Shown here piece by piece: positions 22,114-25,191 of a stretch of 42,347 bases of DNA; the first letter of the stretch is position 1, and every line of letters begins with the position of its first letter. Source of the stretch: Roseomonas sp. (GTDB lineage Bacteria; Pseudomonadota; Alphaproteobacteria; Acetobacterales; Acetobacteraceae); contig JAQGHX010000190.1 in NCBI GenBank assembly GCA_028288745.1, positions 1-42,347 of the forward strand, given 5' to 3'. The position numbers and the translations under genes are program-made. The notes below the pieces were generated by a model. The model saw only the letters and a list, made by a program, of their open reading frames with translations. It searched no databases and was not told the DNA's origin.

Positions 22114-23706
22114 TTAGCTCGCGGCCTGGGCATGCAGGATCTCCGGCGGGGCCGTGCGGCCACGCTTGGCCATCAGCTTGTTCAGCGCATGCACATAGGC
22201 CCGCGCGGAGGCCACGATCGTGTCGGTATCCGCCCCCTGCCCGTCCACCAGCTTGCCGTCCTCCTCCAGCCGCACGGTCACGCGCGCCTGGGCATCGGTG
22301 CCGCCGGTGACGGACTGCACGGCATAGAGCTTCAGGCCGGCACGGTGCGGGACGACCTGCTGCAGGGCATTGAAGGTGGCGTCCACGGCGCCGTCGCCAC
22401 CGGCCACGCCATCGCACAGCTCGCCATCGACCTCCAGCGCCACGCTGGCAATGGGGCGGGTGCCCAGGCCGGTGGCCACCGTCATGGCGACCAGCTTCAC
22501 GCGGTCATGGCCACGCACCACCTCGTCATCCACCAGCGCGACGATGTCCTCGTCGTAGACGACCTTCTTGCGGTCGGCCAGGTCCTTGAAGCGCTTGAAG
22601 GCGTCGTTCAACTGGTTGTCGCCCAGCGTGTAGCCCAGTGTGGACAGCTTGTCGCGGAAGGCGGCGCGGCCGGAATGCTTGCCCATGACCAGCGAGCTGG
22701 TGGTCCAGCCGATGCTCTCCGGCGTCATGATCTCGTAGGTCGCGCTGTCCTTCAGCATACCATCCTGGTGGATGCCGGACTCGTGCGCGAAGGCGTTGCG
22801 GCCGACGATGGCCTTGTTCGGCTGCACGTCGAAGCTGGTGATGGTGGCCAGCAGCCGGCTGGTGCGCAGGATATTCTGCGTGACGATGCCGGTGGTATAG
22901 GGGTGCAGGTCCGGCCGCGTGCGCAGCACCATCGCGACCTCTTCCAGCGCCGCGTTGCCGGCGCGCTCGCCGATACCGTTGATGGTGGCCTCGACCTGCC
23001 GCGCGCCGGCGGTCAGGCAGGCCAGGGTATTCGCCACCGCCATGCCCAGGTCGTCATGGTTATGGGCGGAGAATATCACCTGGTCCGCGCCCGGCACCCG
23101 TTCCCGCACGCTGTTAAAAATGTGGGCCATGTCGGCGGGCATGGCGTAGCCCACGGTGTCGGGGATGTTGATGGTGGTGGCGCCGGCGCGGATGGCGGCC
23201 TCGACGCAGCGGCACAGGAAATCCAGGTCGGTGCGGCTGCCATCCTCGGCGGACCATTCCACATCGGCCACGTGGTTGCGCGCCAGAGTGACGGATTTGG
23301 CGATGGCGTCCAGCACGTCCTCGCGGCTCATCCGCAGCTTGACGCGCATATGCAGGTCGCTGGTGGACAGGAAGGTATGGATGCGGCTGCGGGCGGCGGG
23401 CTTCACCGCCTCGGCCGCGCGCAGGATGTCGCCGGGTGCCGATCGCGACAGGCCGCAGACCACCGGCCCGTCCTTGGCAAAGCGGCCGGCAATGGACTGC
23501 ACGCTGTCGAAATCGCCCTGGCTGGCGATGGGGAAGCCGGCTTCCATCACATCGACGCCCAGTTCCGCCAGGGCTTCCGCCATGCGCAGCTTCTCTTCCA
23601 GGTTCATGGAGAAGCCGGGGGATTGCTCGCCATCGCGCAGCGTGGTGTCGAAGACGATGACGCGGTTGGCCGCGATGGTGCCGAAGCTGGGGTGGTTAAT
23701 GGCCAT
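22114..23706 (-). CDS. leuA: 2-isopropylmalate synthase
   Basis: RVIVFDTTLRDGEQSPGFSMNLEEKLRMAEALAELGVDVMEAGFPIASQGDF; EVDGELCDGVAGGDGAVDATFNAL regulatory domain. Confidence 0.97.
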   Translation of the reverse strand: MAINHPSFGTIAANRVIVFDTTLRDGEQSPGFSMNLEEKLRMAEALAELGVDVMEAGFPIASQGDFDSVQSIAGRFAKDGPVVCGLSRSAPGDILRAAEAVKPAARSRIHTFLSTSDLHMRVKLRMSREDVLDAIAKSVTLARNHVADVEWSAEDGSRTDLDFLCRCVEAAIRAGATTINIPDTVGYAMPADMAHIFNSVRERVPGADQVIFSAHNHDDLGMAVANTLACLTAGARQVEATINGIGERAGNAALEEVAMVLRTRPDLHPYTTGIVTQNILRTSRLLATITSFDVQPNKAIVGRNAFAHESGIHQDGMLKDSATYEIMTPESIGWTTSSLVMGKHSGRAAFRDKLSTLGYTLGDNQLNDAFKRFKDLADRKKVVYDEDIVALVDDEVVRGHDRVKLVAMTVATGLGTRPIASVALEVDGELCDGVAGGDGAVDATFNALQQVVPHRAGLKLYAVQSVTGGTDAQARVTVRLEEDGKLVDGQGADTDTIVASARAYVHALNKLMAKRGRTAPPEILHAQAAS

Positions 23707-23797
23707 GGTGGCGTTCCTTCGTTGACTTTTGCCGGGCAGCAGAGGGCACGCGGGCCCGATTGGTCCCCCTGAGCGATGCCGGCAGGTCAGCCGGGCG

Positions 23798-23908
23798 TCA
23801 CGCCCAGGGGCGGCTAAGTCGAAGGAGGAGGAGGCCGGGAAGCGCGCGCACAGCCACGCCGGACGAAGGTCCGGTCAGCAGCGGGTTGCAGCGCGCGGTT
23901 GCGGTCAT
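23798..23908 (-). CDS. Putative leucine leader peptide of leuA
   Basis: Minus strand ATG 23908: MTATARCNPLLTGPSSGVAVRALPGLLLLRLSRPWA*; 8 Leu in 36 residues with four consecutive Leu codons (CTC CTC CTC CTT); stops 91 nt before leuA. Confidence 0.65.
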   Translation of the reverse strand: MTATARCNPLLTGPSSGVAVRALPGLLLLRLSRPWA

Positions 23909-23915
23909 GGAACCA

Positions 23916-23944
23916 ACGATAGGCACAGGCGGGCGCCCCCGCAA
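23916..23944 (-). promoter_or_regulatory. Putative sigma70 promoter giving a leaderless leader-peptide transcript
   Basis: TTGCGG - 17 nt - TATCGT, then 7 nt (TGGTTCC) to the A of the leader ATG. Confidence 0.5.
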
Positions 23945-23988: not shown

Positions 23989-25191
23989 TCAGGCTTTTTC
24001 ACCGGTATAGCCGACCGTGCTGTTGCCCAGCCGGACGGTGGCCCAGAGGAAGGGCGCCATGGCCTCCGGCAGCAGGTTGATGCCGAGGCCCGGGCCATCC
24101 GGGATGCTGACCCGCCCTCCCTGGATGCGGCCTTCCGGCGGGTCGTCGGTGATCTCCACATAACCCTCCATCCCCTGCCACATCGGATAGATTTCCTGGA
24201 TGGCGAAATTCGGGATGCAGGCGGCGAATTGCAGCGCCACCGCCGTCGCCAGCGGGCTGCCGCAGACATGGGGCTGCACGCGCATGCCATAGGCCTCGGC
24301 CATGGCGGCGATCTTCTTGCCCTCCATGATGCCGCCGGTGAGGCCCAGATCGGGCTGGATGATATCCACGGCGCGGGATTCCATCATCGGCAGGAAGCCG
24401 AAGCGGGTATAAAGCCGCTCCCCCGCCGCGACGGGCATGCGGATGCCGTCGGAAATCTTTTTCAGCGACGGCACGTCGAAGGGGTCGCAGGGCTCCTCGA
24501 CAAAGAAAATATCGAACTGCTCGATTTTGCGGCAAAAGCGCATCGTCTCGTCCGTGGTCAGCCCGCCGCTGAGGTCGAGCATGATATCCACATCCGGCCC
24601 GACCGCCTGCCGCAGCGCCTCCACTTTCCGCAACGCCATGCTCATGGCCTCGCGGCTCAGGGCGCGGCGCGACGGGTGGCGGGAGGTCGCCTGCGGATGC
24701 GCCTCGCGATAGGCGAAGGGGTAGAATTTCAGCGCGTCATAGCCCTCGGCCACGGCCTTTTGCGCGGCCTCGACGAAGGGCTCGATCTCCCGATGCTCCT
24801 GCCCCCAGCCATTGTGGTAGAGGCGTACATCATCGCGCATCTTGCCACCCAGCAGCTCATAGACCGGCACGCCAAGGGCGCGGCCCTTGATGTCCCACAA
24901 AGCCTGCTCGATCGCGCTGATGGCGGAGAAGACGATGGGCCCGCCGCCCTTGGCCCAGAAGGTGTGGTCATACATCTCGGACCACAGCGCCTCGATGCGG
25001 AAGGGGTCTGCGCCGAGGATCATGCGCTCGGCGATATCGCGCAGCATGCCGGCGGCGGCGGTGGCGCCCAGGCCATAGGCGATGCCGGCCTCACCGATGC
25101 CGGTGATGCCCGCGTCGGTATCGATCTCGACGATGACAGGGTGCAGGCGGGCCATCCGGACGATGGAGATCCGGACTTCAGTGATCTTCAT
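23989..25191 (-). CDS. Mandelate racemase/muconate lactonizing enzyme family (enolase superfamily)
   Basis: MKITEVRISIVRM..., GADPFRIEALWSEMYDHTFW, AISAIEQALWDIKGRALGVPVYELLGG, DIMLDLSGGLTTDE, FVEEPCDP, PVAAGERLYTR, IQPDLGLTGG. Confidence 0.95.
   Translation of the reverse strand: MKITEVRISIVRMARLHPVIVEIDTDAGITGIGEAGIAYGLGATAAAGMLRDIAERMILGADPFRIEALWSEMYDHTFWAKGGGPIVFSAISAIEQALWDIKGRALGVPVYELLGGKMRDDVRLYHNGWGQEHREIEPFVEAAQKAVAEGYDALKFYPFAYREAHPQATSRHPSRRALSREAMSMALRKVEALRQAVGPDVDIMLDLSGGLTTDETMRFCRKIEQFDIFFVEEPCDPFDVPSLKKISDGIRMPVAAGERLYTRFGFLPMMESRAVDIIQPDLGLTGGIMEGKKIAAMAEAYGMRVQPHVCGSPLATAVALQFAACIPNFAIQEIYPMWQGMEGYVEITDDPPEGRIQGGRVSIPDGPGLGINLLPEAMAPFLWATVRLGNSTVGYTGEKA

What the first reader, a model, noticed from the sequence alone, without database searches (positions are those of the whole stretch)
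23733..23944. Candidate leaderless leucine attenuator upstream of leuA
On the minus strand, TTGCGG-17 nt-TATCGT sits so that +1 would fall on the A of an ATG starting a 36-aa ORF with LLLL (CTC CTC CTC CTT) and 8 Leu in total. Downstream are alternative pairings: CCGGAC-CTTC-GTCCGG (23859-23874) inside the leader; CCCCTG of the last leader codons with CAGGGG (23805-23810/23766-23771); and CGGGC/GCCCG (23733-23758) just before leuA. Ribosome-mediated attenuation of leuA is established in proteobacteria, and leaderless trpL-type leaders are known in alphaproteobacteria. The specific assignment here is inference.
Basis: partly seen in the sequence, partly recalled or inferred. Interest (0 to 1): 0.65.

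Follow-up and report, generated by a model that had tools for sequence, protein, structure and literature searches.

The report
Leucine-sensing leader ahead of leuA
Just upstream of the first leucine-synthesis gene lies a tiny leucine-rich peptide gene whose rare leucine codons also pair with that gene's ribosome-binding site, so that a ribosome starved for leucine would probably switch the gene on; the same element stands before leuA in much of the Alphaproteobacteria and resembles one described in Actinobacteria.

Summary
A 36-codon ORF (23908-23798, minus strand) with LLLLRLSRPWA* precedes leuA (22114-23706). An ORF with the same ending is found upstream of leuA in almost all of about 80 Acetobacteraceae loci. 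A core RNA (CUUCGACUUANNCGCCCCUGGGCG...CGCUCAGGGG) is found by covariance model in 227/250 genomes of the order and 116/385 of the class. Stem P1 is 10 bp and covaries at 8 of 10 pairs. The leader start is very probably leaderless: a promoter 6-12 nt upstream of its ATG occurs in 59/71 relatives (0.5 expected), with no Shine-Dalgarno. Leu codons are rare ones (CUU 2% in leuA, 35-49% in leaders); the Arg codon CGA (0.7%) is near-invariant. There is no U-run terminator. Instead CUCCUUCGACUU pairs with AAGUC..CGAAGGA, the leuA Shine-Dalgarno; modelled SD accessibility rises from 0.01 to about 0.46 when a ribosome covers it. Best explanation: ribosome-mediated translational attenuation sensing Leu-tRNA, much like the actinobacterial LEU element, but without its loop pseudoknot. 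The leucine response itself is untested. New variant of a known kind; not in Rfam.

The parts
23939..23944 (-). -35 hexamer TTGCGG of the leader promoter
   Evidence: Sequence; TTGNNN-N15-20-TANNNT-N3-12-ATG in 59/71 thinned Acetobacteraceae, null mean 0.5, max 3
23916..23921 (-). -10 hexamer TATCGT, 7 nt before the leader ATG
   Evidence: spacing -10 to ATG 6-12 nt in relatives, 7 commonest
23798..23908 (-). 36-aa leucine leader peptide ORF (leuL), ...LLLLRLSRPWA*
   Evidence: ORF ending (LLLLRLxRPWA* or LRLxRP*) conserved upstream of leuA in nearly all of about 80 Acetobacteraceae loci; rare Leu codons
23815..23824 (-). Strand A, CUUCGACUUA: Leu-Arg-Leu codons that double as anti-Shine-Dalgarno; near-invariant also at most silent positions
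   Evidence: complementarity to region before leuA and third-base covariation
23801..23810 (-). 5' strand of stem P1 (CCCCUGGGCG), overlaps last leader codons
   Evidence: 8 of 10 pairs change on both sides across the class, 95.6% of cells paired
23766..23775 (-). 3' strand of stem P1 (CGCUCAGGGG)
23779..23794 (-). Inner hairpin P2, CCGGC (23794-23790) with GCCGG (23783-23779)
   Evidence: partly covarying in family; loop region folds better than shuffles, mean z -1.8 (family) and -1.5 (class)
23715..23728 (-). Strand A': AAGUC (23728-23724) and CGAAGGA (23721-23715), the leuA Shine-Dalgarno, pairs with strand A and the preceding CUC codon
   Evidence: MFE pairing, SD pairs at P about 0.9-0.98 in the free RNA; AGUC-N-CGAAGG present in 6 of 12 close-group sequences including the window, CGAAGGA in 11 of 12
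22114..23706 (-). leuA, 2-isopropylmalate synthase (TIGR00973 type), the regulated gene
   Evidence: 678 bits against a cut-off of 598.7

Best explanation
It is a leaderless, ribosome-mediated, leucine-responsive translational attenuator of leuA. Transcription starts at or within a few bases of the leader ATG. With enough Leu-tRNA the ribosome finishes the 36-codon leader and leaves; the stretch CUCCUUCGACUU, freed, pairs with AAGUC..CGAAGGA and hides the leuA Shine-Dalgarno, the P1/P2 hairpin bringing the two strands together. When Leu-tRNA is short the ribosome stalls on the rare CUU/CUC run, covers strand A, P1 still forms downstream and the Shine-Dalgarno is open. Shown by comparison: the leader, its codon bias, the leaderless promoter spacing (family level), stem P1 and strand A's complementarity to the region before leuA. 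Inferred: stalling, the direction of the response, and that control is on translation.
For: Leader conserved. Promoter 6-12 nt before the ATG in 59/71, SD before leader ATG in 1/59 but before leuA in 45/59. CUU 2.0% and CUG 74% of Leu codons in leuA against CUU 35%, CUG 14% in the eight codons before the core; CGA 0.7% of Arg codons. P1: 8/10 pairs covary, no shuffle reaches the covariation score. Strand A complementary run of 6 or more nt in 44% of distant sequences against 9% shuffled; third base of A covaries with the partner region, permutation P 0.0004-0.0008; no complementarity with upstream sequence. Modelled SD accessibility in the window: free 0.01, ribosome on A about 0.46-0.48, ribosome 30 nt upstream 0.01; family mean 0.22 / 0.36 / 0.25, P 2e-4. 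No terminator; U-run after P1 in 2/79 family and 6/60 class sequences.
Against: Strand A is more conserved than its partner: A' next to the Shine-Dalgarno is clear in the Roseomonas group but absent or placed just after P1 in many other genomes, so SD pairing alone does not explain why CGACUUA hardly varies. The accessibility tests assume a footprint and equilibrium folding, and the sequences are related. A terminating ribosome also partly opens the SD in the model (0.35). Leucine codon mutations in the Streptomyces leuA leader were reported not to give classical attenuation behaviour (cited in PMC1262725).
Confidence: 0.62

Rival explanations
1. Transcription attenuation: leader translation decides whether transcription ends before leuA, through a hairpin without a clear U-run or through Rho (P1 or the alternative hairpin CUCAGGG-GAA-CCCUGAG that competes with P1).
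For: Ribosome-mediated attenuators of amino-acid operons are usually transcriptional. In Acetobacteraceae a hairpin that competes with P1 is mildly enriched (longest run 4.78 against 4.19 shuffled). A few relatives have a U-run right after P1.
Against: No terminator in the window, none in most relatives; the competing hairpin is not enriched outside the family. It does not explain pairing of strand A with the Shine-Dalgarno region.
Confidence: 0.2
2. Nascent-peptide or termination arrest: the near-invariant end L-R-L-x-R-P-stop with CGA and CUU codons stalls the ribosome in response to leucine or slow termination, as TnaC (which ends in Arg-Pro-stop, own knowledge) does for tryptophan, rather than simple lack of charged tRNA.
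For: Distant leaders often keep only LRLxRP* and few other Leu codons.
Against: The fifth residue is R, G, C, S or H while its nucleotides NGC are mostly kept, the Roseomonas group replaced the UGA by UGG and reads on to WA*, and Methylobacterium and Paracoccus lack the CGA codon, so nucleotides are kept more than amino acids. In the family the Leu run is long and codon-biased.
Confidence: 0.1
3. Binding site of a regulatory protein (the proposal made for the actinobacterial LEU element), the leader ORF being incidental.
For: Strand A is conserved beyond what its partner explains.
Against: Leaderless start, Leu run and codon bias are conserved; no candidate protein was sought.
Confidence: 0.06

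Closest known systems
LEU element upstream of leuA in Actinobacteria (Seliverstov et al. 2005, PMC1262725); leader LeuL1 MRFGLLLLSCRGEGL* of Streptomyces lividans, leaderless, no terminator (PMC8079986)
   Same: Leu-run leader before leuA, leaderless, no terminator, base stem of Leu codons with the leuA Shine-Dalgarno, hairpin directly after the run. Nonomuraea GGGCUCCUUCUUAGCUGCC (L261) and an unnamed alphaproteobacterium GGGCUUCUUCUUAGCUGCC (L213) agree at 18 of 19 bases.
   Different: No pairing of strand A with the P1 loop, i.e. no such pseudoknot, was found here; stem and inserted CGA codon differ; model R2 does not detect the Nonomuraea locus.
Gammaproteobacterial leu operon leader (Rfam Leu_leader)
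   Same: Leu-rich leader peptide before leuA, ribosome-mediated (own knowledge).
   Different: No Rfam match here; no U-run terminator; leaderless; different structure.
Leaderless trp attenuator trpL/peTrpL of Sinorhizobium meliloti (PMC10117765)
   Same: Alphaproteobacterial, leaderless leader ORF before a biosynthetic gene.
   Different: Senses Trp; yields an attenuator sRNA; no relation in sequence claimed.

Membership tests
Ribosome-mediated amino-acid attenuator | Short ORF rich in codons of the amino acid made by the operon, conserved in relatives | tested here: met
Ribosome-mediated amino-acid attenuator | Mutually exclusive RNA structures tied to ribosome position | tested here: inconclusive
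   P1 covaries; A:A' pairing supported; switching itself not shown
Ribosome-mediated amino-acid attenuator (transcriptional type) | Intrinsic terminator with U-run before the gene | tested here: not met
Ribosome-mediated amino-acid attenuator | Response to leucine or Leu-tRNA charging | not testable with these tools
   needs experiment
LEU element of Actinobacteria | Leader peptide with Leu codon run before leuA | tested here: met
   definition
LEU element of Actinobacteria | Base stem of Leu codon run with the leuA Shine-Dalgarno box | tested here: met
   met in the window and close relatives; class-wide A' enriched but not always at the SD
LEU element of Actinobacteria | Pseudoknot inside the base stem | tested here: not met
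   strand A shows no excess complementarity to the P1 loop; other pseudoknots not tested
Rfam Leu_leader and any other Rfam 15 family | Covariance model score at or above the gathering threshold | tested here: not met
   best sub-threshold match Chloroflexi-1, 18 bits against 80, E 0.39
Leaderless mRNA leader (peTrpL kind) | Start site at the A of the ATG, no Shine-Dalgarno | tested here: inconclusive
   promoter spacing and lack of SD strongly support it; start site not mapped

The most novel reading that the evidence does not exclude
One ancient leuA leader type, shared by Alphaproteobacteria and Actinobacteria, has outlived replacement of the enzyme itself: the same RNA core precedes two different LeuA families (TIGR00973 and TIGR00970). 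Its rare CUU/CGA codons serve at once as Leu-tRNA sensor and as anti-Shine-Dalgarno, making it a translational counterpart to the textbook transcriptional leu attenuator.
Probability: 0.3. Interest if true: 0.68.

Novelty: new variant of a known kind. Interest (0 to 1): 0.52.

Why it matters
It gives a testable leucine sensor for leuA across a large part of the Alphaproteobacteria, with a covarying RNA that Rfam lacks, and offers a genetically tractable relative of the actinobacterial LEU element, whose mechanism has been left open. It also shows codon choice in a leader being under two constraints at once (tRNA sensing and pairing with a ribosome-binding site).

Tried and rejected
Classical terminator attenuation as the main reading: no U-run. 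Pairing of strand A or P1 with upstream leader sequence (arm 1 of a classical attenuator): no excess over shuffles. Loop pseudoknot as in the LEU element: no excess. Fixed +1 reading-frame extension after CUU-A (frameshift idea): P1 loop lengths are spread over all three residues mod 3, so no product frame is kept. RNAduplex energies of A against the downstream region were too noisy to decide and were replaced by longest-run and permutation tests. Leaderless promoter pattern outside Acetobacteraceae: 0 of 52 distant leaders, so leaderlessness is claimed for the family only, with a promoter-like match also in Sinorhizobium. Second hits of the model in nine genomes: only one genome (G183) has two strong ones on separate contigs; the rest are the palindromic opposite strand or marginal. 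Vitreschak et al. 2004 (proteobacterial attenuators) is not held, so whether it lists alphaproteobacterial leuA leaders could not be checked.

Full report
Observation. The window is from a Roseomonas/Pseudoroseomonas-like member of the Acetobacteraceae: the closest leuA genes are from those genera, 86-91% identical. The gene is leuA of the TIGR00973 type. The ORF at 23908-23798 reads MTATARCNPLLTGPSSGVAVRALPGLLLLRLSRPWA*. Shuffles of the intergenic DNA gave no comparable Leu-rich ORF in 2000 trials.

Conservation. In almost all of about 80 Acetobacteraceae leuA loci with enough upstream sequence there is an ORF ending LLLLRLxRPWA* or LRLxRP*. Its nucleotides are kept better than its amino acids: CUUCGACUU is invariant in the family but for the third base of the first Leu codon in one sequence, and the following NNCGCCCCUGRGCG is nearly so. 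A covariance model of the core finds 227 of 250 genomes of the order and 86 of 385 genomes of the class; a broader model finds 116 of 385 in the class and, in a phylum-wide sample of 249 genomes, one marginal 29-nt hit outside the class. All 29 distant loci fetched first lie upstream of leuA. In the Sphingomonadales type the gene downstream is a different LeuA family, TIGR00970 (L153; named example Sphingomonas parapaucimobilis), with a compensated stem CCCUUAGGCG/CGCCUAAGGG. Named relatives with looser versions are Methylobacterium bullatum (LLLLIRP*), Paracoccus denitrificans (LLLLTLR*), Phaeobacter inhibens (LLILIRL*) and Sinorhizobium meliloti (LLLLGLIRGCRVR*; the last is not found by the model).

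Structure. P1 pairs CCCCUGGGCG (23810-23801) with CGCUCAGGGG (23775-23766). On 68 thinned sequences 95.6% of cells pair, 8 of 10 pairs show changes on both sides, and none of 500 shuffles reaches the covariation score. Inside is a variable hairpin P2. The Leu codon stretch pairs with the leuA Shine-Dalgarno region in the minimum-energy fold. Across the class, strand A has a run of 6 or more complementary bases between P1 and the leuA start in 44% of sequences against 9% after shuffling, and the one variable base of A covaries with that region (P 0.0004-0.0008). It shows no excess complementarity to upstream sequence or to the P1 loop. The position of A' varies: at the Shine-Dalgarno in the Roseomonas group, nearer P1 in others.

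Start of the leader. A promoter TTGNNN-N17/18-TANNNT lies 6-12 nt before the leader ATG in 59 of 71 thinned family members (shuffles 0.5, maximum 3); only 1 of 59 of these leaders has a Shine-Dalgarno-like tetramer, against 45 of 59 for leuA. This is strong indirect evidence for a leaderless leader in the family. It was not seen in the distant set, apart from a promoter-like match in Sinorhizobium.

Codons. In leuA genes CUG is 74% and CUU 2% of Leu codons; in the eight codons before the core CUG is 14%, CUC 48%, CUU 35%. CGA is 0.7% of Arg codons in leuA yet fixed in the family core. These codons suit a stalling sensor and also spell an anti-Shine-Dalgarno. Sensitivity of ribosome-mediated attenuation to amino-acid limitation has been modelled in general (PMC1183508, listed, abstract only read); which cause dominates the codon choice here is not decided.

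Mechanism. With a 30-nt ribosome footprint on strand A the modelled accessibility of the leuA Shine-Dalgarno in the window rises from 0.01 to 0.46-0.48; with the footprint 30 nt upstream it stays at 0.01. Family means are 0.22 free, 0.36 stalled, 0.25 control (Wilcoxon P 2e-4), class means 0.27, 0.43, 0.31 (P 0.009); relatedness makes these P values optimistic. With no terminator the best reading is translational attenuation. The stall, the direction and the leucine response are inference.

Comparison. The closest described system is the actinobacterial LEU element: Leu-run leader, base stem with the leuA Shine-Dalgarno, a pseudoknot, no terminator (PMC1262725); the Streptomyces lividans leader is leaderless and lacks a terminator (PMC8079986). 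Nonomuraea and one unnamed alphaproteobacterium share 18 of 19 bases at the end of the Leu run, which hints at common origin but is one pair chosen by eye. Because the pseudoknot was not found, it is not filed as a LEU element, only as working like one. No Rfam family matches. The papers searched describe no alphaproteobacterial leuA leader, but the most relevant survey (Vitreschak et al. 2004) could not be read.

Noticed in passing
L153:1501-3063, L162, L169, L187, L259: The same leader core precedes a different LeuA family (TIGR00970 type) in sphingomonad-type genomes, with a compensated P1 stem.
   Followed up: partly
L034 and L035: Pseudoroseomonas wenyumeiae holds two leuA loci with identical leader peptides.
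   Followed up: no
L191:601-653, L144, L142: In some relatives a U-run follows P1 directly, so P1 itself may act as a terminator there.
   Followed up: partly
window 23815-23818: The leader keeps CUU followed by A in nearly all distant genomes, the base context of +1 slippage from CUU to UUA; no frame downstream is conserved.
   Followed up: partly
window 23989-25191: The gene upstream of the leader, on the same strand, is an enolase-superfamily sugar-acid dehydratase-like protein below the curated cut-offs of all matched NCBIfam models.
   Followed up: no
L260: A Sinorhizobium meliloti leuA leader has a promoter-like TTGCTC-17-TATAGG 7 nt before its leader ATG, suggesting it too is leaderless.
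   Followed up: partly
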